From a virus: a stretch of 64,000 nucleotides of DNA. The DNA lies in the IMG/VR virus record IMGVR_UViG_3300048930_001424, positions 1 to 64,000 of that record, one strand, 5' to 3'. The notes beneath the pieces are model-generated. The model had not been told where the DNA came from. It saw only the letters and a list, made by a program, of their open reading frames with translations, and did not search any database. This document shows, piece by piece, positions 31,733 through 55,358 of the stretch. The position numbers and the translations under genes are program-made. Within the stretch, counting starts at the first letter, position 1. Every line of letters begins with the position of its first letter.

Positions 31733-32788
31733 TCACATTGAGAGTCGCAGTTCGCCGGGCTTGCGTTCGAATCGGCTGACAAAATCAGCCTCATGCAAGC
31801 AGAGCAATTGCGCCAGGCTCTCCGTAGTGTGCCCCGCCGAATCACGCAGTTCTCGGAGCAGATCATCGACCAGTACTGGCTCCTCGCCCGCTATTTCAAC
31901 GAGTTCCTTCTTCCGCTGGCCCGTCACGCTGAGGCGACGGAACATGTGCTCGAAGTCGTTGTCCGAAATCCGACCAAGATCGCGAGCGCGATACACAAGT
32001 GAGGCCATCGAGACGCGCCACACAGGCTTGAGGCTCGCCGCACGGGTGAGAGTCAAACCCGAGAGCTCTGAACCGATAAGGCTCTCAGGCATGAGAAACT
32101 CCGAGGCGAAGCGGTTCGCTTCGTCCTCCATCGTCTCCGTCGCCGTCTCGTGCATCACGACGTGTCCGAGTTCGTGGCACAACGAGAACCTCACGCGATC
32201 CGCTGGTGCCTCGGCATTGATGAAGAACAGGGGCGGAGTGTCCTTTGGCCACATGCTGATCGCGTCGATGTCGCGTGTGCCGAACGCAAATTTGAAGACG
32301 ATGCCGCCAGCCGCCTCAATGACGCGGACGAGATTCTGCACCGGGCCGCTGGGCAGCTGCCAACTGGCGCGAACCAGAGCCGCAATCTTCTCGGGATCGT
32401 GACCATGCTCGTCGATGTCGAGAAACTCGACGCTGTGGGGGGTCGAAATATCCACTTCACTGATCAATCGACGGACCAGCATCCGCCGAATATTGACCTC
32501 TGCTTCCAGACGATGGATGTCCGCGGCTTTGGTGGCCGCTTTCTTCCGGTAGAACATGACGCTGAGGCCGAGACCACGCCGCTCGTCCTGCTGGAAAAAG
32601 AATGAACGTGGATACCCGAGAGTGGTGCAGATTCGATCCAGAACTTCTTCGGATGGCTCGCGGTGGCCTCCCTCCATGTGGCTGACGTAGGGCTGAGAGA
32701 CTCTGAGTCGCTCGGCAAGCTCTGTTCGATTCATGGCACGCGATTCTCGCGCGAGCACAAGCATGTCGTGGTTGAACGTGCCGGTCAT
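31733..32788 (-). CDS. XRE-ImmA/IrrE metallopeptidase regulator
   Basis: 351-aa protein with an XRE helix-turn-helix at about residues 8-60 (LAERLRVSQPYVSHMEGGHR) and an ImmA/IrrE zinc peptidase core with HELGH at 205-209 and a downstream E-rich EDEANRFASEFLMP segment. Such proteins cleave repressors or act as the antitoxin-like half of stress modules. The ATG overlaps the end of the upstream partner gene (ATGA), a typical two-gene toxin-antitoxin-like layout. It converges with the phage operon, 14 bp from the end of the Hint gene. Confidence 0.88.
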   Translation of the reverse strand: MTGTFNHDMLVLARESRAMNRTELAERLRVSQPYVSHMEGGHREPSEEVLDRICTTLGYPRSFFFQQDERRGLGLSVMFYRKKAATKAADIHRLEAEVNIRRMLVRRLISEVDISTPHSVEFLDIDEHGHDPEKIAALVRASWQLPSGPVQNLVRVIEAAGGIVFKFAFGTRDIDAISMWPKDTPPLFFINAEAPADRVRFSLCHELGHVVMHETATETMEDEANRFASEFLMPESLIGSELSGLTLTRAASLKPVWRVSMASLVYRARDLGRISDNDFEHMFRRLSVTGQRKKELVEIAGEEPVLVDDLLRELRDSAGHTTESLAQLLCLHEADFVSRFERKPGELRLSM

Positions 32789-33426
32789 GCGGATTCAACA
32801 CCCTTCCTCCGCGCCGACTTGGCGCGAACCGTGATCTTCGATCGCAAATCATCTGCAGCGACCGCGGGTTGCAGCAGTGGCGTCGCGTCGGTCTTCGGCT
32901 CTTCGATGGCCTCGACCCAGTGATTCTCGTCCCAGCTCTTCGGGCAGGTGAGGTAGCGTCCTGCGATCTCCGTACCCACCGAGTTGACGCGATATCCGAA
33001 AATCAATCGCGTAGGCGAGCTCGGCTCCAGTCCTTCGATAAACATCTGGCCCTGGAAGTAGTCGCGCTCCTGGCTGGGCGTGCGGATGTTGCGGGCACAC
33101 AGATCAGAGCCCAACTTCTTGAAACGCACCGCGACGCGGCCGTCGATCAACAGAAGCAGCATCCGCCCGCGCCTCCCGATGCGCACACGGTGATCACCAT
33201 CAAATCGCGCGGCCGCCAACTGGCTCCAGCGATCATGGAGCATGCTCGCCTTGGTGATATCGTTGAATGCCACGCGGCGCGTCGCGTCGTCCGCGTAGAC
33301 GGACTCGACGTACTCCCACGCTTCGTCAAGCAGCTCGTCGAACTGGGGCATGTAGTCAGTGAGGAGCGCGAGTGCGTCTTCTCGGCTGACGATCCGGCGT
33401 TGGATGATGCGGTTTGTCAAGTTCAT
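32785..33426 (-). CDS. Unknown partner of ImmA/IrrE gene
   Basis: 213-aa protein, first gene of the minus-strand pair. Features are an N-terminal helical DYMPQFDELLDEAWEYVESV, a beta-rich middle (GRRGRMLLLLIDGRVAVRFK) and a basic C-terminal tail ending in KSARRKGVES. No nuclease motif was identified. Coupling to an XRE-ImmA gene suggests it is either the effector half of a toxin-antitoxin-type pair or a regulated repressor. An upstream ATG (33477) is possible, but the Met at 33426 precedes the more protein-like sequence. Confidence 0.6.
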   Translation of the reverse strand: MNLTNRIIQRRIVSREDALALLTDYMPQFDELLDEAWEYVESVYADDATRRVAFNDITKASMLHDRWSQLAAARFDGDHRVRIGRRGRMLLLLIDGRVAVRFKKLGSDLCARNIRTPSQERDYFQGQMFIEGLEPSSPTRLIFGYRVNSVGTEIAGRYLTCPKSWDENHWVEAIEEPKTDATPLLQPAVAADDLRSKITVRAKSARRKGVESA

Positions 33427-33461
33427 GGATGTGAGTGTAGGCAGCCAATCGAGCAAACGGA

Positions 33462-33473
33462 GTATTTCAATAC
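33462..33473. promoter_or_regulatory. Small palindrome in divergent promoter region
   Basis: GTATT-TC-AATAC is a 5-2-5 inverted repeat in the 185-bp region between the minus-strand XRE-ImmA pair and the plus-strand defence operon. It lies in an AT-rich patch unlike its surroundings. Size and place suit an operator for the XRE protein, but no second copy was found. Confidence 0.4.
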
Positions 33474-33539
33474 ACAAATCATTACAGACGGGTCACGGGG
33501 GCACCAGAGGTCCCCGCCTAATCTCATCAGCCGCCGACA

Positions 33540-33611: not shown

Positions 33612-36600
33612 ATGCCTCCTGCCCGTCCAAGCAGCCCGGTCCCTGCGGACTACGGTGCGAAGATCAAGGAACTGCGCGGCCGCCTCGGCCTCACGCAGGT
33701 CAGGTTGTCTGAGCGTTTAGGAGTCTCGTTCGCCACCGTGAACCGGTGGGAGAACGCCCAAAGCCGTCCCTCTCCCTTGGCGTGGCAACAGATCCTGGAA
33801 CTGGGTGGCGACGAAGAAGCCGTCGCCGAGGTACCCGAGGATCGCCCACGTTCAGCGGTCATGGATTTCACTGGCCGCCCTGATGCGATCAGGGCGCTGG
33901 CGGAGGGGGAGCGGCTCTCGTTTGGCCACATGACGAATCCCGTGTTCGCCACCGAAATCGCTCAGATCGACCCGCTGCCGCACCAGCGCATCGCCGTCTA
34001 CGACCACATGCTCAAGCAGCCTCGGCTCCGATTCCTGCTCGCCGACGACGCGGGCGCGGGCAAGACGATCATGTCGGGACTCTACATCCGCGAGATGTTG
34101 TCCCGGCGACTGCTGCGGCGCATTTTGGTGGTGCCGCCAGCCGGGCTCGTGGGGAACTGGCGGCGCGAACTCTCGACGCTTTTCAGCCTGTCGTTCCGAA
34201 TCGTCGAAGGCTCCGAAGCCGCGTCGGGCAATCCCTTCATTGGCGACGACAGTGACCGCGTCATCGTGAGCGTGGACACCTTGTCCGGCCCGCGCGTGTT
34301 CGGCCGTCTCCGCGAACCAGAGGTGCAGCCCTACGACCTCGTGATCTTCGACGAGGCCCACAAGCTCGCCGCTGATCGCGGCGGCGACCTTAGGGTCCGC
34401 AGAACTGAGCGTTACCGACTGGCCGAGGCGTTGGCGGGCGTGCCAGATCTTGACGAGGCGTGGACGCTTCCCTGGAGCGCGGCCAACCTGCTGCTGCTGA
34501 CGGCGACGCCGCACATGGGTAAGGACTATCCGTACTTTGCGCTGTGGCGGCTGCTCAATCCTTCTGTCATCTCCACGCCTGAAGCGTTCAACGAGTATCC
34601 CCCGGACCAGCGGGGGCTCCACTTCATCCGGCGCACCAAAGAGGAAATGGTCACGCTGACGGGTCGTCCGCTTTACCCAACGCGAATCTCCGACACGCTC
34701 GGCTACGCCCTGTCGCAGGGTGAAGTCAGCGAGCAGGCACTCTACGACGGCACCACGGAGTACCTGCGATTCATCTACAACAAGGCGAAAATGCTGAACC
34801 GCTCGGCTGCTCGCCTGGCCATGAGCGTGTTCCAGCGCCGCTTGGCGAGTTCCACATTCGCACTCCTGCGGTCCTTCGAGCGGCGGATAGAACGCTTGAC
34901 GACGCTCATCGAGGATGTTCAGGCGGGCAAGATCACGATGGAGCAAATCATCACGCTCCAGCGCCGCATCTCTGACGATGACGACGTGTTCGACTCAAAG
35001 ACGGCTGACGACGAACGGTCCCCGGTAGACGGCGGCGAGGAGAATGAAAAGGCCGAGCAGTCGCTGCTGCAGGGGGTGATCGCCGCGTCGATCGCCGACC
35101 TCATCGCCGAGCGCGACCAGGTGCAGGAACTCCGCGATCTCGCCCAGCGGGTGTACGACAAGGGCGTCGAGTCCAAGTTCGAGAAGCTCCGGGAAGTCAT
35201 CCTCGAGGACCGCTTCGCGCATGAGAAACTGATCGTCTTTACCGAGCACCGCGACACACTCACATTTCTTGTCCGACGCCTCAATGGCATGGGGTACACC
35301 GGCCAGGTCGCTCAAATCCACGGCGGGATGCACTACAGCGAGCGCGAGGAACAGGTTGAAAAGTTCCGCAAGCCCATCGCCGAAGGCGGGGCACGGTTCA
35401 TGATCTGTACCGACGCGGCCGCTGAGGGCATCAACCTTCAGTTCTGTTGGGTGATGATCAACTACGACGTGCCCTGGAATCCCGCGCGGCTCGAACAGCG
35501 CATGGGCCGCATCCACCGCTACGGTCAGCAGCACGATCCCGTGATCATCATGAACCTCATCGCCCCCGAGACGCGCGAGGGCAAGGTGATGGAGACGCTC
35601 CTAGAGAAACTGGAGCGCATCCGTAAGCAGCTCAAGTCCGACAAGGTCTTCGACGTGATCGGACGGCTGTTCCAGGGTGTTTCGATCAAGCAGTACATGG
35701 AGGCCGCCGTCGAAGAGGATGACGCCGCAGCTGTCGCCGCCAAACTCGGTGGTATCCTGACCGCCGAGCAGGTCGAAGCGTTGGCCGAGCGAGAGAAGTC
35801 GCTCTTTGGGGATGGCGGCGATGTGAAGCGGGAACTGCCCCGTATCCGTGCTGAGATCGACAACGAGGCATATCGCCGACTGCTGCCCGGCTATGTCCGC
35901 CAATACATCGAGAACGCCGCCCCGCTCGTGGACATCGAGATCGACGGAGATGCACGCTCGTTTTTTTCGTTCAAGCCCGCTCGTCGCGGCGCGATCGACC
36001 GCATCTTGCCCACGTTGGACTTCTACCCCACGCGCCTTCACGAACTCCTGACGGTCTCCCGCCCGCCCAGCAAAGCGGACGGTATCTGGGTGCATCCCGG
36101 CGAGCCCGTCTTTGAGCAGTTCCGGGCCATCGTGTCCGACCGGCTGAGCGCCGAGGCCGCGAAGGGCGGGGTGTTCGTCGATCCCGACGCGGAGCGCCCG
36201 TACCTATTCCACCTCGCGCTTGTGTCGGTCGTCCGCGACGCCGATCCGCAGATGCCCGAGCTCGGTGCAGCATCCACGTTTGAATCCCGTCTCGTCGGCG
36301 TCAAGCAGTTCGAAGGGACTGAACTTCAGGTCTGTCCCGTCGAGCACTTGCTGTTGCTCAAGGGAGGCACAGGGCTTCCAGCAGCGGCGCAACGGCTGGC
36401 GGTCGCGGCACCGGGACTCCGAGATCAGGCGGCCGCGTTCATCGTCGAACGCGTCGCCCGGCAGTTGGCCATCGACCGCAAGAACCGACTGCTCTCCACG
36501 ATCGAGGAACGCGAAGCCTTCCTGCGGCGGGGCTTCAGCTACCAGGAGGCCGAACTCGCCGCCGCCCGCGGCAAGCAGGCCGAAAAGGCGCGATCAGGCA

Positions 36601-37181
36601 ACCGCACCGCCGCGAAAGAACTGGAGGAGATCAAGCGGGCGCAGCGTGATCTCACGGCCCGCCGTGACCGAGCCATCGCGGTCATCCGCCGCGAGCCGGA
36701 ACTGATCGGTCTTGCCCCGATTCATTTCGTCGCTCACGCTCTCGTGGTGCCATCCTCAGACCCGCTCGATCGCGAGCGACACGACGCTGATGTTGAGCAT
36801 GTCGCCATGCAGATCGCTTGGGCATGGGAGGAATCAGAGGGAGCCGTCGTCAAGGACGTGCATACGCCAGAACTCGCGCGGGCGGCGGGCTTGCCGGATT
36901 ACCCGGGCTTCGATCTGTTGTCGGTGCGGCCGAGCGGTGAGAAACGGGGCATCGAGGTCAAGGGCCGTGCCGCGACCGGCGACGTGGAGTTGTTCTCCAA
37001 CGAGTGGGCCAAGGCGTGCAACATGGGGCCGTCTTACTGGCTTTATGTGGTCTACGACTGCGCCACTCCAACGCCGCGACGTGCGCGCGTCCGCGACCCA
37101 TTCAATCGTCTGCTCGCCAAGGCAAAGGGCAGCATCCTCATCAGCGCTAAGCAGATTCTCTCTGTGGAAGGCGATGCCTGA
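33612..37181 (+). CDS. HTH-SNF2 helicase-DUF3883 defence protein
   Basis: 1189-aa protein. An XRE-type HTH (residues about 16-64: IKELRGRLGLTQVRLSERLG and TVNRWENAQSRPS) precedes an SNF2/SF2 helicase with Walker A DDAGAGKT near 145-152, DEAH near 246-250 (VIFDEAHK) and helicase C-terminal segments (FTEHRDTLTFLVRRL, later MGRIHRYGQ). A coiled region and a DUF3883 domain close the C terminus (near 1095-1175, FDLLSVRPSGEKRGIEVKG). DUF3883 resembles restriction-endonuclease-fold modules, and the EVKG fits a PD-(D/E)xK-like motif. It would translocate on and possibly cut non-self DNA. It is the first gene of the operon. Confidence 0.88.
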   Translation: MPPARPSSPVPADYGAKIKELRGRLGLTQVRLSERLGVSFATVNRWENAQSRPSPLAWQQILELGGDEEAVAEVPEDRPRSAVMDFTGRPDAIRALAEGERLSFGHMTNPVFATEIAQIDPLPHQRIAVYDHMLKQPRLRFLLADDAGAGKTIMSGLYIREMLSRRLLRRILVVPPAGLVGNWRRELSTLFSLSFRIVEGSEAASGNPFIGDDSDRVIVSVDTLSGPRVFGRLREPEVQPYDLVIFDEAHKLAADRGGDLRVRRTERYRLAEALAGVPDLDEAWTLPWSAANLLLLTATPHMGKDYPYFALWRLLNPSVISTPEAFNEYPPDQRGLHFIRRTKEEMVTLTGRPLYPTRISDTLGYALSQGEVSEQALYDGTTEYLRFIYNKAKMLNRSAARLAMSVFQRRLASSTFALLRSFERRIERLTTLIEDVQAGKITMEQIITLQRRISDDDDVFDSKTADDERSPVDGGEENEKAEQSLLQGVIAASIADLIAERDQVQELRDLAQRVYDKGVESKFEKLREVILEDRFAHEKLIVFTEHRDTLTFLVRRLNGMGYTGQVAQIHGGMHYSEREEQVEKFRKPIAEGGARFMICTDAAAEGINLQFCWVMINYDVPWNPARLEQRMGRIHRYGQQHDPVIIMNLIAPETREGKVMETLLEKLERIRKQLKSDKVFDVIGRLFQGVSIKQYMEAAVEEDDAAAVAAKLGGILTAEQVEALAEREKSLFGDGGDVKRELPRIRAEIDNEAYRRLLPGYVRQYIENAAPLVDIEIDGDARSFFSFKPARRGAIDRILPTLDFYPTRLHELLTVSRPPSKADGIWVHPGEPVFEQFRAIVSDRLSAEAAKGGVFVDPDAERPYLFHLALVSVVRDADPQMPELGAASTFESRLVGVKQFEGTELQVCPVEHLLLLKGGTGLPAAAQRLAVAAPGLRDQAAAFIVERVARQLAIDRKNRLLSTIEEREAFLRRGFSYQEAELAAARGKQAEKARSGNRTAAKELEEIKRAQRDLTARRDRAIAVIRREPELIGLAPIHFVAHALVVPSSDPLDRERHDADVEHVAMQIAWAWEESEGAVVKDVHTPELARAAGLPDYPGFDLLSVRPSGEKRGIEVKGRAATGDVELFSNEWAKACNMGPSYWLYVVYDCATPTPRRARVRDPFNRLLAKAKGSILISAKQILSVEGDA

Positions 37182-37217
37182 GATTGTCCTGGTCGGATTC
37201 TCGTGGGAAGCTCCCTT

Positions 37218-38288
37218 ATGGCAGACACACACTCCAAGTCCATTTGTGCAACTCTGGCAGACTACCGGCATGGCGAGATCGCTGCTCGAACGCCAGCCGA
37301 TGTCGATCGATGGATTAATCAGTTTGACAAGGGCGATCGAGACGTGGTCCTTCAGGAGACGGACCGGTTATTGCAAAAGCACTACGTCAGCGGAAAGGCC
37401 GCCAGGGCGTTCATCGACAGCATCTGGGCGACACAGAAGCTGATGGGAGCGTCGGCCGCATCAACAGTTGGCGGGTTCAAGTTCTTGGAGGTTGCCCGTA
37501 AGGGGGCAAGCCAAGGCGCCATGATCGAGTTGGCGAGATCTAGCCTCAAGCAGGCTCTCCGACTTGATCTCGATGCGTGCGGCAAGAGCCCTACGGCATA
37601 CGTCTATTTAGATGACTGCCTTTTTTCCGGCAACACCGTTGTGCACGATCTCAAGGATCACGTTGACGACCTGGCCAAGAACTCGACTGTCCACATGGTG
37701 TTCCTCGGCGGACACAACGGCGGGGTCAGGTACATCACGAAAGCTCTCGCACCCATCCTCGCCAAGCGTGGGATCAAGCACAACGTATGGACGATCCCCA
37801 CTCACACCTTTCAGAATCTACCCTGGGAGCCGGAGTCCTTCCAGCCGATGTGGCCCACCGAGGTGAAGGGTGACAAGCTGGTCGATGCCTACCTGGCTCG
37901 CGTGCAGAAAGCGTGTGAGGGCAAGTCCTTCACGCCCAGGCTGTTCCGGCCTCAGGCACGGACCAAAGAGGACGTGTTCTCTTCCCCTGCGGCGCGTCAA
38001 GCTGTTGAGACCGCGTTTCTGCGCAAGGGAGCATTCATTGTCGCGCAGTGCCAGAACCCGAAGGACAGCATGCGTCCGCTCGGCTACGAGTATCTGAGCT
38101 CACTCGGGTTTGGGGCGTTGATTGTGACCTACCGCAACATCGCGAACAACTGCCCCTTGGCGCTGTGGTGGGGCGATCCGAATGCCGCCAAGTCACATCC
38201 GCTCTCGAAGTGGTTCCCGTTGATCCCCCGTAGAAGCAATCAGGAGACTGCGAGCTCATCCTTCAGTGCTGACGATTACGACTTCTGA
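37218..38288 (+). CDS. PRTase-CE-like phosphoribosyltransferase-fold protein
   Basis: 356-aa protein matching the phosphoribosyltransferase conserved-effector pattern. It has an N-terminal helical part with RWINQF at residues 31-36, a PRPP-loop-like YVYLDDCLFSGNT at 128-140 (two acidic residues followed by SGNT), and a C-terminal HPLSKWFPLIPRR typical of the family. Known PRTases move phosphoribose between PRPP and bases. In conflict systems this variant is predicted to act on nucleotides or nucleic acids, with unproven chemistry. It lies between the helicase and the NADAR-methyltransferase. The Met at 37218 is chosen; a GTG five codons earlier is possible. Confidence 0.75.
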   Translation: MADTHSKSICATLADYRHGEIAARTPADVDRWINQFDKGDRDVVLQETDRLLQKHYVSGKAARAFIDSIWATQKLMGASAASTVGGFKFLEVARKGASQGAMIELARSSLKQALRLDLDACGKSPTAYVYLDDCLFSGNTVVHDLKDHVDDLAKNSTVHMVFLGGHNGGVRYITKALAPILAKRGIKHNVWTIPTHTFQNLPWEPESFQPMWPTEVKGDKLVDAYLARVQKACEGKSFTPRLFRPQARTKEDVFSSPAARQAVETAFLRKGAFIVAQCQNPKDSMRPLGYEYLSSLGFGALIVTYRNIANNCPLALWWGDPNAAKSHPLSKWFPLIPRRSNQETASSSFSADDYDF

Positions 38289-38301
38289 ATCGAACACCCA
38301 C

Positions 38302-41300
38302 ATGGCCAGAACACCAGAAACCCGCACCTACGACCGCGCGACCTCTGTGGTCTTCCTGAAGACCAAAGAGCGATTCGGTGGGCTGTCGAACATGGCGGGA
38401 GGGTTTCCATTGCAAGTTTGTGGCCGTCGCATCTTGACATCTGAGGCGTTGTACCAAGCGTGCCGGTTCCCGCACATGCCGGACATTCAGGAACTCATCG
38501 TCGATCAGTCGAGCCCGATGACTGCGAAGATGAAGAGCAAGCCCTACCGGAGTCAGTCCCGGGCGGATTGGGATGCTGTCCGCGTCACCATCATGCGCTG
38601 GTGTTTGCGCGTGAAGCTGGCTCAGAACTTCAAGTCGTTTAGCCGACTCCTGCGAGAGACGGGTGATCGGCCGATTGTCGAGGAGTCCCGCAAGGACGAC
38701 TTCTGGGGCGCGAAGCCCTCCACGCCAGACCGGCTTGAAGGCAAGAACGTCCTCGGTCGCTTGCTTATGGAGCTTCGCCAACTCGTTCTGGCGACGGCGG
38801 ACGACACGCTTCAGTCCGTCGACCCACCGGCCTTGCGTGAGTTTCTGATTTTTGGTCAACCGATCGGGCGGATTGGCGCGGGCGCGGCGGCACCCGCGCC
38901 CATGTCTGTCGCGGCGCTGTTCGCCGACGCTCCCGAGACATTGGAAGAAGCAAAGCCCATCACGGCCTCATCCGCTGGTCTCATCTCGCCCCCTGTGCCT
39001 GCTGTCGTTCCCGTGAGCATCACAATGACCGACCACCCACGCCTCATCGAACACGCCTTCCCATTGAAACAGGCGTCATTGGACTCCGTTCATGAGAAGA
39101 ACGTGCGCCATGGCCACATTTCTACGATCCATCTCTGGCCAGCACGGCGACCCCTCGCTGCTTGCCGGGCGGCACTGATCGCCACTCTACTGCCGGACCC
39201 CGGCACGCCCGAAGGCCGTCTGGCGCTGTGTGAGAAGATTGGCGGACGAGTGGTCAAGCGGATCGAGAAGAAGAAAATGCCGAACGGCTCCACGGTCGAG
39301 CGAGAAAAGCTCGACACTGAAGGGGGCATCCTCCACTGGGGGCGAGAAGTTGAGAACGTGGAGGCGATGGAGTGGTTCCGCCAGGAGATTCGCAAGGCCC
39401 ACGGCGGCCGCGCTCCAAAGGTGCTTGACCCTTTTTCGGGTGGTGGCGCAATCCCGCTCGAAGCCATGCGACTGGGATGCGAAGCGACGGCCGTGGACAT
39501 CAACCCGGTCGCATGGTTCACGCTCAAGTGCACTCTTGAATACCCGCAAAACCTCGCTGGTCAGACGTGTAGGCTCCCCGCATTCATTCTGCGCAATGAG
39601 GCCTTCATGTTCGAGTTCTTCACGAAGGCAAAGGGGATGAGCAAGGGCCAGGCCGCCAAGGCGATGGAACGGCTGGGACGGAAGCTCAAAGACGGAGAGC
39701 AGACTAACTTGGATTTCGGAGCCGCCGCGGGCGAACTCGACGCAGACATGGCATGGCACGTGCGGGCGTGGGGGCGATGGGTCCTAGAACGCGCCCGGCA
39801 CGACCTATTCAAGTACTACCCGACTTACGCTGACTTCGAACCGCTTAAAGACAGCGGTAAGGTCTACGAGCGCCAGCCGATGCGCCTCGTTCCTGCGAAT
39901 GAGAGCGGCGTTGCCGATTGTGATTCGCTCAACAGGGAGTTCTCAAAGGACTACCTGGCAGTCGCGGGCAATCCGCGGTGGTTGTCCAAACCGACAGTGG
40001 CGTATCTCTGGGCCCGCACAGTCACCTGCAAGAACTGTCGGGCAACGGTCCCATTGCTAAAGACACGCTGGCTTTGCAAGAGCGACAGAAAGCGGGTCGT
40101 TCTGACGATGACGCCACGTGCAGACGGGACTGGCGTTGTGTTCGGTATCGACAGCCAGGTTGAGAGCAAGGGTGGCAACGCAGCGCAGAAGAGGGAGCAC
40201 GACAAAAAGGTCGGCGCGGGCACCATGAGCCGCGCCGGTGCCAAATGCCCCTGCTGTCCGAGCATCATGACGATGGAGGACATTCGCTTGGAGGGACAGG
40301 CCGGGCGACTCGGAAGTGTGATGACCGCAGTCGTCGCGGATGAACCTCAGGGCAAGACTGGAAAGTCGTATCGCTTGCCGACTCGAGAGGAGCTCGAAGC
40401 GGCATCACTTGAGGAAGAGGCGATCAAGTCTGCATTCGCGGCCGTGCCGTTTGGCGTGCCTGAAGAGCCGACGCCCAGCGCTGATGCACTGGGCATGCGC
40501 ATCCCGCTCTACGGATTCAACAAATGGAGAACGCTTTTCACTCCTCGGCAGTTGCTTGCCCTTGGTGTTTTCGTCACCGACACGCGCGACGCTCGCAACG
40601 AAATGACCACTCACGGATACTCAGAAGAGTGGGTCGAAGCGGTTGGGGCTTACCTAGCGTGTGGCATCGATCGCCTATTGGATTTCGCCAACTGCGGCAC
40701 GCAATGGAAGCTCGACGCGAGCACCATCAACCACTCGTTCGTCCGCTTCGCTTTACCGATTACCTGGGACTACGCAGAGGGGAATCTCCTCGGCGAAAGC
40801 GCGGGAAGTTATCTGATTTGCCAAGATCGGATCGCCACGGCCTTGGACACGTTTTGCGAGTGGAAGTTCAGGTCTCCGGCACCGAAGATCATCCGCCAGT
40901 CATCTGTGCAGCCCACGCGAGGCGAATTTGATCTCATCCTGACAGATCCACCGTACTACGACGCAATCCCCTATTCGGATCTCATGGATTTTTTCTATGT
41001 GTGGCTTCGTCGAATGGTCGCCGGAGTAAGCAAGGACATCGATCTGGCATTTCAGGGCGACCTGTCGCCAAAATGGAGCGATGACGAGAACGATGGCGAG
41101 CTCGTTGACGACTCCAGCCGCCACAAGGGCGATGCGGCGAAGAGCAAACAAGTCTACGAGGACGGCATGGCCCGCGTCTTCACTCAATGCGCGGCCGTCC
41201 TCAAACCACAAGGCCGCCTGGTAATCGTTTTCGCCAACAAACAGCCCGACGCCTGGGAAACGCTCGTCTCAGCGATCATTCGTGCGGGGTTCACAGTGGA

Positions 41301-42348
41301 CGGAACCTGGCCCATCCAGACGGAGCAGGCGAGCCGAATGCGAGCGATTTCCTCTGCCGCCCTCGCGTCTTCCGTTTGGCTTGTGTGCAAGAAGCGTTCT
41401 GCGACCGCCACTGCGGGATGGGACAACCGCGTCGTCGAAGAGATGCGGACAAACATCGGCAGGCGACTTCAAGAGTACTGGGATGCGGGGATCAAGGGGC
41501 CGGACTTCATCTGGGCAGCGACTGGCCCGGCTCTTGAAGCATTCAGCAAACATCCGGTCGTCAAGAAGGCCAACGGCCCCGGCACCATGAGTGTCACCGA
41601 GTTCCTCACGCACGTCCGTCGCCTCGTGGTGGACTACGTCGTCGGCCAGGTGCTTTCGGGCACGGATGGTGCCAGCGGAGTAGTTGGGAGTGGTGCGGCC
41701 GCCGACAGGTTGGATGAAGCCACGGCCTACTACTTACTTCACCGCAACGATTTTGGTCTCGGTGAAGCTGCCGTGGGCACCGTCATCCTCTACGCCGTCT
41801 CGTGCGGACTCTCCGACCGCGACTTGGTTGATACTTGGGAATTGGCCGTCATGGTCGGTGATGACACTGTCACAGCCGATGATGCAGAAGACGAAGCTCA
41901 AGACGGTGGTGACGGACCTTCCGAGGATGAGTCAGGTAGCAAGGGGAGCACCATCCGCCTAAAGCGATGGAGTGAACGCACAGGTCGGAGCAGCGCCTCC
42001 ATCGGCTACGAAGCCCCCGGCGGACGACCCGTGCCGCTCATCGATCGTGTCCACCGCGTGATGCAGTTGTACAAGGCTGGCGACATCGGTAAGGTTGACG
42101 AGTATCTTGACGAGCACGGTCTGCGCCGTCACGAACTGTTTAAGCGTGTAATCCAGTCACTGATCGAGGTGTCGCGCCGGGAGCGAGGGACGGCCGCGGG
42201 CGGTCGTGATGATCACGGCGACGAGACGACGCTACTCGAAGCTCTCAGCAACCACATCGGGGCCAAGGGTGCGAAGCGGCAGACAGGCCAGCGCGAACTA
42301 AGCGAGACCACCGACAATTGGACGCCGACCTCGGCGTCGGCGGAGTAA
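38302..42348 (+). CDS. NADAR domain fused to DUF1156 DNA methyltransferase
   Basis: 1348-aa protein with two parts. Residues 1-165 are a NADAR (YbiA/DUF1768) domain: FGGLSNMAGGFPL, the key Glu48 in LTSEALYQA, RKDDFWGA near 130-137 and NVLGRLLMELR near 149-159. NADAR enzymes remove ADP-ribose from guanine. A Pro/Ala linker spans 190-240. Residues 245-1100 are a DUF1156-type adenine methyltransferase: DPFSGGG near 376-382, zinc-ribbon CKNCRA and CPCCP segments, and DPPYYD near 882-887. The C terminus is acidic and then helical. I know of no standard system with this fusion. An ATG at 38266 would overlap the upstream gene; 38302 starts at the domain. Confidence 0.88.
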   Translation: MARTPETRTYDRATSVVFLKTKERFGGLSNMAGGFPLQVCGRRILTSEALYQACRFPHMPDIQELIVDQSSPMTAKMKSKPYRSQSRADWDAVRVTIMRWCLRVKLAQNFKSFSRLLRETGDRPIVEESRKDDFWGAKPSTPDRLEGKNVLGRLLMELRQLVLATADDTLQSVDPPALREFLIFGQPIGRIGAGAAAPAPMSVAALFADAPETLEEAKPITASSAGLISPPVPAVVPVSITMTDHPRLIEHAFPLKQASLDSVHEKNVRHGHISTIHLWPARRPLAACRAALIATLLPDPGTPEGRLALCEKIGGRVVKRIEKKKMPNGSTVEREKLDTEGGILHWGREVENVEAMEWFRQEIRKAHGGRAPKVLDPFSGGGAIPLEAMRLGCEATAVDINPVAWFTLKCTLEYPQNLAGQTCRLPAFILRNEAFMFEFFTKAKGMSKGQAAKAMERLGRKLKDGEQTNLDFGAAAGELDADMAWHVRAWGRWVLERARHDLFKYYPTYADFEPLKDSGKVYERQPMRLVPANESGVADCDSLNREFSKDYLAVAGNPRWLSKPTVAYLWARTVTCKNCRATVPLLKTRWLCKSDRKRVVLTMTPRADGTGVVFGIDSQVESKGGNAAQKREHDKKVGAGTMSRAGAKCPCCPSIMTMEDIRLEGQAGRLGSVMTAVVADEPQGKTGKSYRLPTREELEAASLEEEAIKSAFAAVPFGVPEEPTPSADALGMRIPLYGFNKWRTLFTPRQLLALGVFVTDTRDARNEMTTHGYSEEWVEAVGAYLACGIDRLLDFANCGTQWKLDASTINHSFVRFALPITWDYAEGNLLGESAGSYLICQDRIATALDTFCEWKFRSPAPKIIRQSSVQPTRGEFDLILTDPPYYDAIPYSDLMDFFYVWLRRMVAGVSKDIDLAFQGDLSPKWSDDENDGELVDDSSRHKGDAAKSKQVYEDGMARVFTQCAAVLKPQGRLVIVFANKQPDAWETLVSAIIRAGFTVDGTWPIQTEQASRMRAISSAALASSVWLVCKKRSATATAGWDNRVVEEMRTNIGRRLQEYWDAGIKGPDFIWAATGPALEAFSKHPVVKKANGPGTMSVTEFLTHVRRLVVDYVVGQVLSGTDGASGVVGSGAAADRLDEATAYYLLHRNDFGLGEAAVGTVILYAVSCGLSDRDLVDTWELAVMVGDDTVTADDAEDEAQDGGDGPSEDESGSKGSTIRLKRWSERTGRSSASIGYEAPGGRPVPLIDRVHRVMQLYKAGDIGKVDEYLDEHGLRRHELFKRVIQSLIEVSRRERGTAAGGRDDHGDETTLLEALSNHIGAKGAKRQTGQRELSETTDNWTPTSASAE

Positions 42349-42354
42349 TCGAAC

Positions 42355-45300
42355 ATGGCAAAACTACCCTGGAAACCCTGGCACGAAGTGGTCAAGCTGC
42401 GGGACGATCTCAAGTCAGGCGAGCTGCCTCTGCACATGTTCGCTGCGGACCTCTACGAGGTCCTGATGCAGAACGGCAAACGGCCGATCTACGAAAAACC
42501 GGAGAACTTCTTCGCGCTGACTTTCCCGACGCACAACCTGCGCGCCCTGGTTCGTGACGTGGTGCTTCGCGTCGCAGGCAAAAATGACAAGGCTGTGCGC
42601 CAGTTGGAGCTCACATACGGCGGTGGCAAGACGCACACGCTCATCACACTCCGCCATCTCGTGCATGATCCGTCGGCACTGCCGGACGTGCCCGCCGTCG
42701 GCGAGTTCGAGCAAGCGATTGGGATGAAGCCACCGAAGGCCCGCGTCGCTGGCCTGTGCTTTGACAAGCTCGACGTTGAGACGGGAATGGATGTTCGGTC
42801 GCCGGACGGCAAGGTCCGGCGGCTGAAGCAGCCCTGGAGCGTGCTCGCGTACCAGATCGCGGGCGATGACGGGCTCAAGCTCCTGCACGCCGACAAGAAG
42901 GCCGAGGAACGCGAGTCAGCCCCCGCCGAGAACGTCCTCACCGAGTTGCTGGAGATCCCGGTCAAGCAGGGCTTCGGCGTGCTCATCCTCATCGATGAGG
43001 TGCTGATGTATGTGCGCGAGAAGGTCGCCCTCGCGCCCGACTACCGGGCGCGTATGGTGAACTTCTTCCAGTACCTGACGCAGGCGGCTACAAAGGTGGA
43101 CCGCTGCTGCATCGTGGCCTCGCTTCTGGCCAGCGACCCCAAGAAGAATGACGCCTTCGGCAACGAACTCAAGGCCGAGCTCTACGACATCTTCCAACGC
43201 CAACGAGAAGAGGCCGTCGAGCCGGTCGTAAAGGAGGACGTGGCCGAGGTGCTTCGGCGGCGGTTCTTCACGACCGAGTCCATCAAGACCCCCGGCGACT
43301 TCAAGCAGCATGTGATCGCCGCAATCAAGGGCATCGCCGACCTAGACGAGCAGACCGCCAAGCAGGGACTCGCGACGGAGGACCGCTACCTCAAGAGCTT
43401 CCCCTTCCACCCCGAACTGACGGAAGTCTTCTACAGCAAGTGGACCCAACTGGATGGCTTCCAGCGCACCCGTGGCGTGCTGCGGACGTTCGCGCTCGCG
43501 CTCCGCGAAGCGGAGAAGTGGGATACCAGCCCCCTCGTTGGTCCTGCGGCGTTCCTGACCGCGCCGGGCAAGAGCGGTCTTTCAGAGGCGGTGGGCGAAC
43601 TCGTCACGGTGGCCGACACCGGCGGAGGCGACGGCGGCCGCCGCCAGGCGTGGACTGGCATCCTCGTGGGCGAGTTGGCGCAGGCCCAGAACATCCAGTT
43701 GGAGTCGGTCGGCCTGAGGTTCCGTGAGATCGAGGAGGCCGTGATCGCCACGTTCCTTCACTCTCAGCCCATCGGTCAGACAGCCAAGACGCGGGAACTC
43801 ATGCTCCTGCTGGGGCCGACCCGCCCGTTCCGAATCGATTTGGAGAAGGGCCTCACCCGCTGGGCACAAACGAGTCATTGGCTCGACGACCGCCTCGCAC
43901 CCGGAGGGAACGACCTGCCCGCCCAGTGGCGGCTGGGCAACCGCCCGAACCTCAACCAGATGCACTCCAAGGCTGCGGGCGAGATCTCCGATGATGTAGC
44001 TCGCGCCCGCCTGATCGATGAGATCGGCAAGACTAAGGCCCTGACCTCCGGCGCCTCAGCCGCTGGTGTGCGCGTTCACACGCTCCCTGCCAAGCCAAAG
44101 GAAATCGACGATGACGGCGTGTTCCGGTACGCAGTGCTGGGACCGAGCGCGGCCTCGGAATCGGGCAAGCCGAGCGCCGAGGCCAAACGGTTCCTTGACG
44201 AGACCACAGGCGCGGAAAAGCCCCGCGTGTTTCGCAACTCCGTGCTGCTGCTGACCCCGTCAAAGGACGGGCTCGAAGTGGCGATGGCCCGCGTGCGCGA
44301 GCTCATGGCGTGGGACGTGGTCCAGAAGGACCTCAAGGAGCAGGAGAAAGAGGGGAACGTCGATGCGTCGCGGTTGGCGACGTTGGCCATGAACATCGAC
44401 AAAGCCAAGGGCCGCATTCCCGAAGCGGTGAAGCAGGCGTACTGCATCGTCGTGACCGTGAACGACAAGGACGATGTCCACGCCTTCAAGATCACGGTCA
44501 CCGACGATCCAATCTTTCAGACAATCAAAGAGGATCAGCGGTCACGCATTCAGGACACGGCGATCACCGCAGAGGCCCTCCTCCCCGATGGTCCGTATAG
44601 CCTCTGGAAAGAGGGCGAAACCAGTCGTCGCGTGAAGGACCTCGCCGGGGCGTTTGCGCAGATGCCGCACCTTCCGAAGATGCTCAAGTCGCAGGCGATC
44701 GTGGACACGTTGGTGGAAGGCTGCGCACAGGGTGCGTTCGTTTTGCGCCTGATGCGCCCCGACCGGACGTTCCGTACCTGGTGGAGGAGTCGCCCCGACG
44801 AGGCGGCGCTTAACGATCCCGCGCTCGAACTCGTGTTGCCGAAGGCAGCTGAACTCACAGACGTGGATTCTGATCTGCTGCGGCAAGGCGCGCTGCCGAG
44901 CCTCTGGGCTGGCACTCAGATCACGGTTGCGGATGTGAAGTCGTATTTCAACGGCTCCAAGGTCGTTCAGGTTCAACGGGATGGGTACGAGGAACCCGTG
45001 CTGATTCCCAAGGCATCGAGCGAGGCGATCGAGCGGGGGGTGACGGAGGCAGTTGAGGCAGGGGCCATCTGGCTCACGTCTGGCCCGGCGAGCCTTTTGG
45101 GCGAACCGATCCCAGCAGGAATCCTCACCGACGCTGCGACGCTGCTCCCACCACCCGCGGCGATCACCGCTCCCGAAATCCTGCCCGAAAATCTGCCGTC
45201 GGCGTGGCAGGGCGGCGAAGCAACCGCCCTGGCGCTGGCCACCGCGCTGTCGCAGAACGTGGGGAGGACGCTGCCGTGGAAAACCGTTCGAGACGTGATC

Positions 45301-45669
45301 GGCGGCGCGATCGCAGCGAGGTTTGTGTCCGTTGGTTCCGGGACATGGCCATGTGACTTGGCCGGTGCGGGAGTCGTGCGGCTCAAGGTTGTCGCCGCTT
45401 CTGGCGGCGGAGGCGGAGGCGGGGGTGGCCCCGGCGAAGGCCGCAAGCAGAACGTTGCCATCGCCGCTGCGGACTTCGAGCCGTCTGAGATTCAGGACCT
45501 GAGCGACCACATGGCGCGGCTGCTTGAGATTCGTGCAAAGGCCAACGTGCCGATTCGCTTCCATGTCCGCGTGGAGCTTGGCGATGGGGCCAAGCCCCTG
45601 GACAAGAAACTCCTCGCGGAGTTCAACCAGGAACTGGCATCCCTCAAGGACGGGTTCTCTGTTCAATAA
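42355..45669 (+). CDS. DUF499 AAA+ ATPase
   Basis: 1104-aa ATPase. Walker A is GGGKT at residues 89-93, within YGGGKTHTL, and Walker B is VLILIDEVLMY near 207-217, the DUF499 arrangement. A middle region with a helicase or adaptor look (LLGPTRPFRIDLEKG near 485) and a C-terminal Ala/Pro-rich and Gly-stretch segment (GGGGGGGGGP near 1020) follow. DUF499 proteins are genetic partners of DUF1156 methyltransferases in defence islands and are thought to couple ATP hydrolysis to DNA transactions. Only 6 bp separate it from the methyltransferase gene, so they belong to one operon. Confidence 0.88.
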   Translation: MAKLPWKPWHEVVKLRDDLKSGELPLHMFAADLYEVLMQNGKRPIYEKPENFFALTFPTHNLRALVRDVVLRVAGKNDKAVRQLELTYGGGKTHTLITLRHLVHDPSALPDVPAVGEFEQAIGMKPPKARVAGLCFDKLDVETGMDVRSPDGKVRRLKQPWSVLAYQIAGDDGLKLLHADKKAEERESAPAENVLTELLEIPVKQGFGVLILIDEVLMYVREKVALAPDYRARMVNFFQYLTQAATKVDRCCIVASLLASDPKKNDAFGNELKAELYDIFQRQREEAVEPVVKEDVAEVLRRRFFTTESIKTPGDFKQHVIAAIKGIADLDEQTAKQGLATEDRYLKSFPFHPELTEVFYSKWTQLDGFQRTRGVLRTFALALREAEKWDTSPLVGPAAFLTAPGKSGLSEAVGELVTVADTGGGDGGRRQAWTGILVGELAQAQNIQLESVGLRFREIEEAVIATFLHSQPIGQTAKTRELMLLLGPTRPFRIDLEKGLTRWAQTSHWLDDRLAPGGNDLPAQWRLGNRPNLNQMHSKAAGEISDDVARARLIDEIGKTKALTSGASAAGVRVHTLPAKPKEIDDDGVFRYAVLGPSAASESGKPSAEAKRFLDETTGAEKPRVFRNSVLLLTPSKDGLEVAMARVRELMAWDVVQKDLKEQEKEGNVDASRLATLAMNIDKAKGRIPEAVKQAYCIVVTVNDKDDVHAFKITVTDDPIFQTIKEDQRSRIQDTAITAEALLPDGPYSLWKEGETSRRVKDLAGAFAQMPHLPKMLKSQAIVDTLVEGCAQGAFVLRLMRPDRTFRTWWRSRPDEAALNDPALELVLPKAAELTDVDSDLLRQGALPSLWAGTQITVADVKSYFNGSKVVQVQRDGYEEPVLIPKASSEAIERGVTEAVEAGAIWLTSGPASLLGEPIPAGILTDAATLLPPPAAITAPEILPENLPSAWQGGEATALALATALSQNVGRTLPWKTVRDVIGGAIAARFVSVGSGTWPCDLAGAGVVRLKVVAASGGGGGGGGGPGEGRKQNVAIAAADFEPSEIQDLSDHMARLLEIRAKANVPIRFHVRVELGDGAKPLDKKLLAEFNQELASLKDGFSVQ

Positions 45670-45701
45670 ATCCAGATGACGGGCATCGCTAAAGGAGCCC
45701 C

Positions 45702-46496
45702 ATGCCAGCTAATGCACGAGATACATTCCGGATCGACATCGCCCGCGCTCAGGCTTTGGTAGATCATGCGGCGTCGCTCCCGAGTGGCTCAGACCCGGAA
45801 CATCTGTTGCGGGACGATGTGCTGCGTTCCGGCTGGATGTTCGCGGTTGGGGCGATGGATGCCTATTTCTGCGATGCCTATGCAGACGTGATTGCCGCGA
45901 CACTGATTTGCAAAGCGAGAGAACCGGGGGTCGTATTACCTGCCTTCGTGCTGAAGATCCAAGTGCCAGTGGCGACGATCCTCGAGGCCTACACGGCTCG
46001 CCCGAACTGGAAGTGGCGCATGGCTGCCCGGGCCATGCTCGAGGAGGAAAACGCCTTGCAGATCGAGACGATTCGGAAGTGGTTCAACCCCTTCTTTGAC
46101 AAGCCCGCAAAAGTGTTCTTTGAAGTCGTTCCAGCATGGCTCGCAGTTGCCCCAGCACCTGACAGGCTCTTTGGCACGACCAATGCTGTCTTTTCCGCAT
46201 TGGTCGGGAAGGCTCGTTCAGATGCCCACACGGAGGCCCGAGACGCGTTTCATGGTCGGTTGACTGAGATGGTCCAGCGGCGGCACGACTGCATCCATGC
46301 CTGCGACCGTCCCGGCAACTCGCCGCAGCCAATTGCGGGGCCGGGCACCGTTGGAAACGTCATTCGCGACATTACCTTTGTGGTCGAGCAGTTCAACACC
46401 CATCTCGATACCGAGTTCCGGCGCTGGCTCGCCTGCGGCGGTGTGCCGGGGTCCACGGGCTTTTCAAACGCCGCGATTCAGCAGGTGGGGTATTGA
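45702..46496 (+). CDS. HEPN (RiboL-PSP-like) nuclease candidate
   Basis: 264-aa, largely helical protein. RHDCIHACDRP near residue 194 fits the HEPN R-X4-H motif (Arg194, His199), the hallmark of many RNA-cleaving HEPN domains, and the surrounding pattern resembles the RiboL-PSP-HEPN family. It follows the DUF499 gene by 32 bp and precedes a strong hairpin terminator, so it is probably the last gene of the same operon. The expected role is an RNase effector triggered when the upstream machinery detects invasion. Family assignment rests on the motif and helicity only. Confidence 0.7.
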   Translation: MPANARDTFRIDIARAQALVDHAASLPSGSDPEHLLRDDVLRSGWMFAVGAMDAYFCDAYADVIAATLICKAREPGVVLPAFVLKIQVPVATILEAYTARPNWKWRMAARAMLEEENALQIETIRKWFNPFFDKPAKVFFEVVPAWLAVAPAPDRLFGTTNAVFSALVGKARSDAHTEARDAFHGRLTEMVQRRHDCIHACDRPGNSPQPIAGPGTVGNVIRDITFVVEQFNTHLDTEFRRWLACGGVPGSTGFSNAAIQQVGY

Positions 46497-46914: not shown

Positions 46915-48810
46915 TCAGCGCACGGCCTGCTCGCCGGCGAGGATGCGATCGAGCCAGGCAACGTCCCAGATGCGGTCGGCGATCCGGCGGTAGAGCGCCT
47001 GCCGTTCGTCGAGGTCCGCCTTCTTGAACTGACCATGCGCCCGGAACGGAAGTTCCTGATCCCGGACAAAGCGGACGAATCCGGGGTTGTGCTCGTAGGC
47101 GCGAGGGTGCAGCGACTTGGCCAGCGCGTTTTGTCCGAAGTAGTGCTCCAGCTTGTCGGCATAGGGCCGATCCCCGTAGGAGGCGTTGAACGACTTGGGG
47201 AGCAGCAGGAGGCCGCCAAACCGGTTGCGGTAGTCTTCGAAGTCGGTCTTGTGCTGAAACTCGTCGCGGAAATCCTCCGGGTGGTTCGGCCAGATGTGCT
47301 CGACCTCGAATCCCTTCTTCCCCCGAAGCGTGATGTACTCCGCGTAGCGAGACTGGCCGCCGCCGCTCACATCGATGTAGTCCGCCATGCGAGCCAGTAG
47401 ACGCTTGATCGGCTTGTGGCTCCACTGGTTCAGATAAAACCCATCGAACCCCGTGAGCCTCTCGGTTTGCTCTTCGAGCCGCTTGCGCAACGCCGCGGCG
47501 ATCTCCTTCGGGCTGCCGCCCCGGATGTCGCGCACGACGGTGAAGACGTTGTACTGCAGCGAGTTGTAGTCGCAGTTGCGGAAGTTGCACAGTCGGCGCG
47601 ACAGATAGATGTCTGCGTACTTGGCGACGAGCCGCATCTTCAGCCGGATCACGTCGTCGGAATCGCTCCGTGACAGGGCAGCCAGCAACAGCGTCGGCTG
47701 GTGGGTGAACTGGTGCGTGGCGTTGTGGTAGACGTTCTCCAGCCCAGGCGTTGGCTGCATTTCCGCTCGGCGGATGACCATGTACCACTTCGCGTAGAAG
47801 GCCATCTCCGCCGTAATGAAATCCCGGTACGCGGGCGAATGCGGCTGGCTGTTCTTCGCCAGGCCAACACGATCTGCCTGCTCTCGCACCCAGCGGTGGA
47901 ACTCCGTGCCGATCCGGTCCCACGCCTCGGGCCGAGCATCCTTCTTGCGGATGCGGATGTTGTCGGCGTACTGGCTGCGGAGCCACGCCTTGAAGAAGTC
48001 GGAGTCGTACTCCTGGTTGTCGGGCGCCAGCGCCCTCATCTCGGCCAGCATCCTCTTCCACTCGGCGCTCGCAGCGTCGCGGGAACGGGTATCCGCGATG
48101 TTCGCCAGCAGGTACCCCTTGAGCATGTCCGTCGGCGACAGTGATAGGCCGCGGTCATTCATGGTCTCGAAGATCGTGTAGGCGACATCATCGGAGTAGG
48201 CGGTGATCTCGACCAGGTGAACGTTCTTGGTGAGCCAATCCACGAAATAAGGGAGGGCGGCATCATCGATCTCGTCGGGCCAGAGCTCCTCAATCTCGTT
48301 GTACCGGGCCACGATGTTTCTCGACGACTCGGGCAGGTCCTCGTCGTCGATGTCGGTCCCGTCGAATAGCGCCTGCATGATGGCCCGCCGCTCCGGCACA
48401 TCGACGTTGAACGACTTCTCGCCGTACTCCTCTGAGTAGATCATCTCCCCGACGCTGTTCTGTTGTTTCGCGGCCTGCTGCCGCTTCATCAAGAACAGCA
48501 GGACCAGCGTGAGCGTCGTCAATCGCTGCTGGCCGTCGATGATGTAGTCGCGGCCGTCCTTCTGGCTCACGATGATCGAGCCCAGGAAGTACCGGTCATA
48601 GCCGGCGACGGCGCGACGCTCGTGCCCGGGCTCGTAGCTCCGGAAAAACACGTCGGTCAGGTCGCTGATCAACTCCTCCAGCTGCTTGGTCTGCCACTTG
48701 TACTCGCGCTGGTAGTAGTCGATGTAGAACTTCCGGCCGAACAGGATCTCGCGGAGCGTCTTGCCCTTGCCGTCGATGTTCTTCCGCTGGATGGATTGGT
48801 CGTTGCTCAT
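46915..48810 (-). CDS. GmrSD-like type IV restriction protein (DUF262-DUF1524)
   Basis: 631-aa single-chain protein. The N-terminal DUF262 (GmrS-like) part carries the family motif DGQQR at residues 92-96 (IIDGQQRLTT), preceded by DYYQREYKW at 31-39. The C-terminal DUF1524 (GmrD-like) nuclease has an HNH-type VEHIWPN at 503-509. GmrSD enzymes cut DNA carrying modified cytosines such as glucosylated hydroxymethylcytosine, using nucleotides. It reads opposite to the neighbouring modules and its start is divergent from hsdR, with 145 bp between. Confidence 0.92.
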   Translation of the reverse strand: MSNDQSIQRKNIDGKGKTLREILFGRKFYIDYYQREYKWQTKQLEELISDLTDVFFRSYEPGHERRAVAGYDRYFLGSIIVSQKDGRDYIIDGQQRLTTLTLVLLFLMKRQQAAKQQNSVGEMIYSEEYGEKSFNVDVPERRAIMQALFDGTDIDDEDLPESSRNIVARYNEIEELWPDEIDDAALPYFVDWLTKNVHLVEITAYSDDVAYTIFETMNDRGLSLSPTDMLKGYLLANIADTRSRDAASAEWKRMLAEMRALAPDNQEYDSDFFKAWLRSQYADNIRIRKKDARPEAWDRIGTEFHRWVREQADRVGLAKNSQPHSPAYRDFITAEMAFYAKWYMVIRRAEMQPTPGLENVYHNATHQFTHQPTLLLAALSRSDSDDVIRLKMRLVAKYADIYLSRRLCNFRNCDYNSLQYNVFTVVRDIRGGSPKEIAAALRKRLEEQTERLTGFDGFYLNQWSHKPIKRLLARMADYIDVSGGGQSRYAEYITLRGKKGFEVEHIWPNHPEDFRDEFQHKTDFEDYRNRFGGLLLLPKSFNASYGDRPYADKLEHYFGQNALAKSLHPRAYEHNPGFVRFVRDQELPFRAHGQFKKADLDERQALYRRIADRIWDVAWLDRILAGEQAVR

Positions 48811-51337: not shown

Positions 51338-51411
51338 TCGCCCTACAACCCGCCCCTGTCCCTCGTCTCCACCCCCGCTCCCCTGACCTCACAGATGAAC
51401 TGAACCCCGCG

Positions 51412-55355: not shown

Positions 55356-55358
55356 ATC

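What the first reader, a model, noticed from the sequence alone, without database searches (positions are those of the whole stretch)
33612..46496. Five-gene operon with NADAR-methyltransferase fusion, PRTase-CE, helicase, ATPase and HEPN: candidate new defence system
Seen: five plus-strand genes with short gaps, one sigma70-like promoter and one terminator. DUF1156 methyltransferase plus DUF499 ATPase plus helicase-DUF3883 is a recognised defence-island grouping. Added here are a PRTase-CE-type gene and a NADAR domain fused to the methyltransferase. NADAR enzymes remove ADP-ribose from guanine, and PRTases move phosphoribose. Inference: the system adds or removes a ribosyl-type mark on nucleic acid as part of self/non-self marking, with the HEPN protein as RNA-targeting effector.
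Basis: partly seen in the sequence, partly recalled or inferred. Interest (0 to 1): 0.93.

Follow-up and report, generated by a model that had tools for sequence, protein, structure and literature searches.

The report
Toxin–antidote cassette wired into restriction system
A known two-gene anti-phage unit (a probable toxin of the phosphoribosyltransferase kind plus its NADAR antidote) has been spliced into a restriction-like defence operon, with the antidote fused to the DNA methyltransferase; the same unit is joined to restriction enzymes in many unrelated bacteria, which suggests that restriction systems are booby-trapped with it.

Summary
The five ORFs exist. The core is an ordinary Hma (BREX-related) operon: helicase HmaA, DUF1156 methyltransferase HmaB, DUF499 ATPase HmaC. 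A PRTase-CE gene plus a NADAR domain is inserted between HmaA and HmaB, the NADAR fused in frame to HmaB. The closest relative found (L165, 61–66% identity) has the same operon without the insert, its HmaB starting at the Met still present in the fusion. The pair is not unique to this window: 79 of 80 bacterial PRTases of this kind (the exception ends at a contig edge) and 33 of 33 in viral contigs have NADAR next to them. Including the window, 40 loci are stand-alone pairs, 37 have NADAR fused to a type I HsdS subunit and 7 to HmaB, by several independent fusions. Both components pass NCBIfam cut-offs for 'DS32' anti-phage proteins, so the pair is known; I found no description of its wiring into restriction systems. 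NADAR catalytic residues and the PRPP loop are intact. Most likely mechanism: PRTase is a toxic effector, NADAR its antidote held by the restriction complex, so phage attack on that complex triggers toxicity. Many NADARs also carry a sliding-clamp-binding-like motif. The HEPN gene is an orphan, probably peripheral.

The parts
33612..37181 (+). HmaA: XRE HTH + SNF2/DEAD helicase + NOV_C (DUF3883)
   Evidence: Pfam; PADLOC HmaA 4.6e-150; GAGKT, DEAH, QRMGRIHR motifs; 66% identical to HmaA of L165
37203..38288 (+). PRTase-CE gene (ATG at 37218), probable toxic effector; PRPP loop YLDDCLFSGNT
   Evidence: PF24390 1e-48; NCBIfam DS32_1 322 bits against cut-off 250; D137, D138, G143 invariant in 85 rows; AF2 pLDDT 90, pTM 0.88
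38302..42348 (+). NADAR::HmaB fusion protein (1348 aa)
   Evidence: Pfam; PADLOC HmaB 1.9e-112; DPFSGGG and DPPY motifs
38302..38817 (+). NADAR domain (residues 1-172): E48, R55, W90, R94, E127, W135
   Evidence: PF08719 1.9e-23; DS32_2 272 bits against cut-off 240; conservation
38866..39024 (+). Flexible Ala/Pro-rich linker with degenerate clamp-like SVAALF
   Evidence: sequence; comparison with other tails
39025..42348 (+). HmaB DUF1156 DNA methyltransferase part, from its original start Met
   Evidence: aligns with L165 HmaB residue 1 (MTDHSRLIEH), 61% identity
42355..45669 (+). HmaC DUF499 AAA+ ATPase
   Evidence: PF04465 1.3e-20; PADLOC HmaC 4.4e-72; GGGKT
45702..46496 (+). Orphan HEPN-like protein (RHDCIH), probably peripheral
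   Evidence: Pfam E=0.02 below cut-off; no homologues; not kept in other Hma-fusion loci

Best explanation
An Hma (BREX-related, restriction-modification-like) operon has taken up a PRTase-NADAR two-gene cassette, the pair NCBIfam calls DS32. Shown here: the two genes are almost never apart; in the window the cassette lies between HmaA and HmaB; NADAR is joined in frame to the complete HmaB; the same cassette is joined to HsdS in type I restriction loci; both predicted active sites are conserved. Inferred: PRTase-CE is a toxic effector that attaches a phosphoribosyl-type group to a nucleic-acid target, most likely DNA near replication forks. NADAR, an N-glycosidase, removes it and so acts as antidote, as in the DarT-NADAR and YarT-YbiA pairs. 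Fusing the antidote to the methyltransferase or specificity subunit ties protection to an intact restriction complex. A phage that inhibits, titrates or destroys that complex, or takes over replication, leaves the PRTase unchecked and the cell stops growing (abortive infection), comparable in logic to PrrC held silent by a type I restriction enzyme.
For: PRTase beside NADAR: 79/80 bacterial loci, the exception ending at a contig edge and one NADAR being cut by an edge; 33/33 viral contigs; 3/3 plasmids. Fusion to HsdS in 37 loci, nearly all with M and R in the locus, and to HmaB in 7. At least 7 changes for HsdS and 5 for HmaB are forced on the PRTase tree, and at least 3 on the HmaB tree. Empty-site relative L165. 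Catalytic residues kept in stand-alone, HsdS- and HmaB-fused classes alike. PRTase-CE occurs as N-terminal domain of a NACHT/nSTAND3 protein and beside ORC/CDC6-like ATPases, is weakly similar to the type III-A retron PRTase, and retron PRTases are regarded as effectors (PMC12548924; PMC9122126). NADARs are antitoxins of ART toxins (PMC11543638; PMC11125620). The gap before HmaB also hosts toxin modules in other Hma operons: RelE/ParE-HigA, Fic. Clamp-like motif in 34/54 stand-alone tails and 31/38 HsdS fusions against 4/1104 other ORFs. PrrC precedent: PMC2610378 abstract.
Against: No toxicity, target or release trigger was tested; PRTase-CE activity is unknown and could be metabolic. NADAR carries Arg55 where E. 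coli C7 NADAR has Lys95, and K95R was active in vitro but failed as a DarT1 antitoxin. The clamp motif is absent in strict form from all 7 HmaB fusions, including this one, and the stand-alone pair exists without any restriction system. NADAR may be needed for defence rather than for restraint. I could not read the source behind the DS32 models.
Confidence: 0.55

Rival explanations
1. Self/non-self ribosyl mark: PRTase writes a phosphoribosyl mark on DNA or RNA and NADAR, steered by the methyltransferase, erases it from self.
For: Writer and eraser chemistries match; NADAR is tied to DNA-recognising subunits; YbiA-type NADARs cleave N-glycosides.
Against: The pair is self-sufficient in about half of loci without any recognition subunit or conserved third partner, which suits a toxin-antidote; unmethylated foreign sites, not self, would hold an HsdS-borne eraser longest (inference).
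Confidence: 0.13
2. Passenger addiction module: the pair only stabilises the operon; the fusion keeps antidote dosage tied to the operon and senses nothing.
For: Other toxin-antitoxin modules occupy the same gap in Hma operons; stand-alone pairs lie in prophages and plasmids.
Against: Repeated fusion specifically to target-recognition or methylation subunits and the NCBIfam anti-phage naming of the pair suggest a functional link.
Confidence: 0.17
3. Small-molecule signalling: PRTase makes a PRPP-derived nucleotide signal on infection and NADAR degrades it.
For: Classic PRTases make nucleotides from PRPP and a base; the NADARs score close to the riboflavin-intermediate N-glycosidase family (69-73 bits, cut-off 73.7).
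Against: No conserved receptor/effector gene next to stand-alone pairs; the clamp-like motif and HsdS/HmaB fusions point to DNA.
Confidence: 0.1
4. NADAR as a site-directed base-removing restriction enzyme, brought to unmethylated sites by HsdS/HmaB, with PRTase as helper.
For: NADAR is an N-glycosidase and is fused to recognition subunits; base-excision restriction enzymes exist (PMC10273834, abstract).
Against: Characterised NADARs remove ADP-ribose from guanine rather than unmodified bases; stand-alone NADAR has no recognition subunit; HsdR is kept in most type I loci.
Confidence: 0.05

Closest known systems
DS32 anti-phage pair (NCBIfam NF053875 + NF053876)
   Same: Both window components exceed the equivalog cut-offs (322 vs 250; 272 vs 240 bits); same order, PRTase then NADAR
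   Different: Here NADAR is fused to HmaB and lies inside an Hma operon; no strict clamp-like tail
Hma / DUF499-centred BREX-related system (PMC12839542)
   Same: HmaA, HmaB, HmaC in order with intact motifs
   Different: PRTase and NADAR inserted between HmaA and HmaB; that survey's text has no mention of NADAR or PRTase
DarT1-NADAR and YarT-YbiA toxin-antitoxin pairs
   Same: NADAR-family antidote next to a glycosyl-transfer enzyme; catalytic Glu kept
   Different: Partner is a PRTase, not an ADP-ribosyltransferase; Arg55 replaces the catalytic Lys; YbiA-type Glu rather than Asp
Type III-A retron PRTase effectors
   Same: Weak but significant sequence similarity over the C-terminal part (E about 1e-6)
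   Different: No retron gene identified here; partner is NADAR
PrrC silenced by a type I restriction enzyme (EcoprrI)
   Same: Effector gene embedded in a restriction locus and possibly held in check by it
   Different: Different toxin fold; here the antidote itself is fused to the restriction subunit

Membership tests
Hma (BREX-related) | Helicase HmaA, DUF1156 methyltransferase HmaB, DUF499 ATPase HmaC in one operon | tested here: met
DS32 pair | PRTase above the NF053875 cut-off | tested here: met
   322 bits against 250
DS32 pair | NADAR above the NF053876 cut-off, directly downstream | tested here: met
   272 bits against 240
DS32 pair | NADAR as a separate protein | tested here: not met
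   fused to HmaB; so this is a fused variant, not a plain DS32
DS32 pair | Protects against phage | not testable with these tools
   needs phage challenge
DarTG1 (DarT-NADAR) | DarT ADP-ribosyltransferase beside NADAR | tested here: not met
   neighbour is PRTase-CE
DarTG1 (DarT-NADAR) | Catalytic Glu, Lys and Asp of C7 NADAR | tested here: not met
   Glu48 kept, Arg55 in place of Lys, Glu127 YbiA-type
Type III-A retron | Reverse transcriptase gene and msr-msd RNA | tested here: inconclusive
   no reverse transcriptase among the neighbouring genes scanned; no RNA search made
NADAR enzymes | Conserved catalytic pocket | tested here: met
   E48, W90, E127, W135, G136, N149 kept in all rows with a residue there

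The most novel reading that the evidence does not exclude
PRTase-CE phosphoribosylates DNA bases, a DNA modification not known before, and NADAR, docked on the replication clamp or on the restriction complex, strips it; phages that disable the clamp or the restriction complex unleash the damage.
Probability: 0.25. Interest if true: 0.92.

Novelty: new variant of a known kind. Interest (0 to 1): 0.72.

Why it matters
It would show that restriction systems are repeatedly wired to a reversible toxin by fusing the antidote to the subunit that recognises or methylates DNA, a molecular tripwire against anti-restriction. It gives a testable role for PRTase-CE, an effector-like domain also seen in NACHT proteins and related to retron effectors but without known chemistry, and suggests a physiological target of NADARs at the replication fork.

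Tried and rejected
A single-protein PRTase scan of viral contigs found nothing; the alignment query found 33. Searches for papers combining NADAR with DUF1156, HsdS or type I restriction gave only chance co-mentions; 'PRTase-CE' gave none. The preprint I recalled as a possible source of DS32 is not held. PDB sequence search found no true PRTase homologue; Foldseek gave only weak matches to uracil/orotate phosphoribosyltransferases (E 0.03 at best, probability up to 1.0 over about 73 residues), consistent with the fold but not decisive. HEPN as a conserved part was rejected.

Full report
Observation. The window is the first 64 kb of a 90,256-base IMG/VR virus record with prophage-like genes (integrase, primase, terminase, portal, head protease) followed by a defence island. 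The five ORFs are real. Pfam and PADLOC identify HmaA, PRTase-CE, NADAR::HmaB, HmaC and a weak HEPN-like protein. Promoter and terminator matches are at chance level.

The core is Hma. HmaA/B/C score 4.6e-150, 1.9e-112 and 4.4e-72 and keep the helicase, methyltransferase (DPFSGGG, DPPY) and Walker motifs. PMC12839542 groups such loci as DUF499-centred BREX-related systems; its text has no mention of NADAR or PRTase.

The insert. The closest relative found, viral contig L165, has HmaA (66%), HmaB (61%) and HmaC (64%) directly adjacent, with no trace of PRTase, NADAR or the HEPN protein. Its HmaB begins MTDHSRLIEH; the window fusion reads ...SIT-MTDHPRLIEH, so the original start Met is retained inside the fusion. 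The window therefore looks like an ordinary Hma operon plus a PRTase–NADAR cassette joined in frame to HmaB. Other Hma operons carry other modules in this gap: a RelE/ParE toxin with HigA antitoxin, Fic, and various others.

How general. Plasmid homologues of the PRTase all precede a stand-alone NADAR gene. A scan of 84,980 species genomes found 187 relatives, of which the best 80 were kept by PRTase similarity, not by context. NADAR lies directly downstream in 79; the exception, and one partial NADAR, are at contig ends. All 33 viral-contig hits have it too; some of these repeat genome loci. Counting window, L002 and plasmids, 40 are stand-alone, 37 fused to HsdS and 7 fused to HmaB. HsdM and HsdR were labelled in 32 of 37 HsdS loci; three more have ORFs of fitting size that my gene picking left unlabelled, two are cut by contig ends. 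In 17 the locus also has a GmrSD-like (DUF262) gene. On the PRTase tree HsdS fusion needs 9 changes (7 forced by well supported branches) and HmaB fusion 7 (5 forced); on an HmaB tree fusion needs 4 (3 forced). Several rows have long branches, so exact numbers are uncertain. Plasmid Hma methyltransferases show no NADAR: among the 40 best matches listed none begins before residue 226 of the fusion, and none of the 215 records has a place covering 80% of it.

Already known part. NCBIfam has equivalog models DS32_1 (PRTase-like anti-phage protein) and DS32_2 (NADAR family anti-phage protein); the window's two components pass both cut-offs, as does the NADAR of HsdS-fused P0010. In E. coli, 62 of 5,426 genomes match the pair and 19 hold most of it at 95-99% identity; the one examined lies in a lambdoid prophage. 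I could not read the publication behind the models.

Chemistry. The PRTase keeps the PRPP-loop signature (Y-x-DD-xx-F-[ST]-G; D137, D138, G143 invariant in 85). AlphaFold2 gives a confident model (pLDDT 90, pTM 0.88) whose best recognisable solved relatives, weakly, are uracil and orotate phosphoribosyltransferases. NADAR keeps Glu48, Trp90, Glu127, Trp135-Gly136 and Asn149 in all three classes (Arg94 in nearly all rows), with Arg55 where E. coli C7 has Lys95. The adenine- and ribose-recognising positions of the Phytophthora ADP-ribosyl NADAR (Tyr84, Asp86 as given in PMC11543638) align with Gln85 and invariant Arg87; E. coli YbiA also has Arg there (alignment-based). This hints at a phosphoribosyl rather than an ADP-ribosyl substrate, but YbiA also removes ADP-ribose from guanine in vitro.

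PRTase-CE as effector. In one phylum sample, other PRTase-CE genes sit next to ORC/CDC6-like ATPases or are fused to a NACHT/nSTAND3 domain, the usual place of an immune effector (established knowledge of STAND proteins). Retron III-A PRTases are regarded as effectors (PMC12548924; PMC9122126) and are weakly similar to this one.

Clamp-like motif. Stand-alone NADARs often end in QPALF, QSDMF, QINMF, QGDLF or QSLSLF, resembling the bacterial sliding-clamp-binding consensus QL[SD]LF (from memory). 34 of 54 distinct tails carry it in the last 12 residues (shuffled mean 1.4, maximum 7 in 2000 rounds); HsdS fusions keep it in the linker (31 of 38; shuffled mean 1.0); strict matches are 0 of 7 in HmaB fusions. 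Only 4 of 1,104 other ORFs and 0 of 81 PRTases have it; by 70% identity clusters 10 of 24 have it. It suggests docking at replication forks, hence DNA as target. Binding itself is untested.

Reading. The facts fit a toxin–antidote pair, with the antidote tied to the restriction machinery: shown are the pairing, insertion, fusions and conserved sites; inferred are toxicity, target and release. Stand-alone pairs show no conserved third partner and sit among other defence genes and integrases. The window's HEPN-like gene is not shared by other Hma-fusion loci.

Noticed in passing
C-termini of stand-alone NADARs (e.g. L005, L032, L142) and linkers of NADAR::HsdS (e.g. L056): Recurrent sliding-clamp-binding-like motif Qxx[LM]F, far above the background of other ORFs.
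   Followed up: partly
gap between HmaA and HmaB in L157-L159, L169, L173, L187: This gap hosts different modules in other Hma operons (RelE/ParE-HigA, Fic, AAA ATPase, unknown proteins).
   Followed up: partly
window 31733-33477 (-): XRE plus M78 peptidase gene matching PADLOC RmrA (2.5e-67) with a 230-aa partner; a similar XRE-M78 pair lies upstream of the type I locus in L002.
   Followed up: partly
window 48956-57646 (+): Type I restriction system (R, M, S) followed by a PDC-M01A/B (PtuA/PtuB-like) pair.
   Followed up: partly
window 46915-48810 (-): 631-aa protein matching HEC-06 (PADLOC) between the Hma operon and the type I system; a GmrSD-like (DUF262) gene also lies in 17 of the PRTase-type I loci.
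   Followed up: partly
window 61327-63474 (+): 715-aa QueC-like protein matching QatC (PADLOC 6.9e-51) over only part of its length.
   Followed up: no
L091, L092, L095, L093: Other PRTase-CE genes paired with ORC/CDC6-like ATPases or fused to NACHT/nSTAND3, a separate group of probable PRTase-effector systems.
   Followed up: partly
L003, L004: Viral-contig NADARs 41-46% identical to the antidote, without PRTase and without the clamp-like tail; possible phage counter-defence.
   Followed up: no
window 30211-31719 (+): Ser/Gly-repeat protein with an internal Hint-like domain (weak Pfam match) at the border between phage genes and defence island.
   Followed up: no
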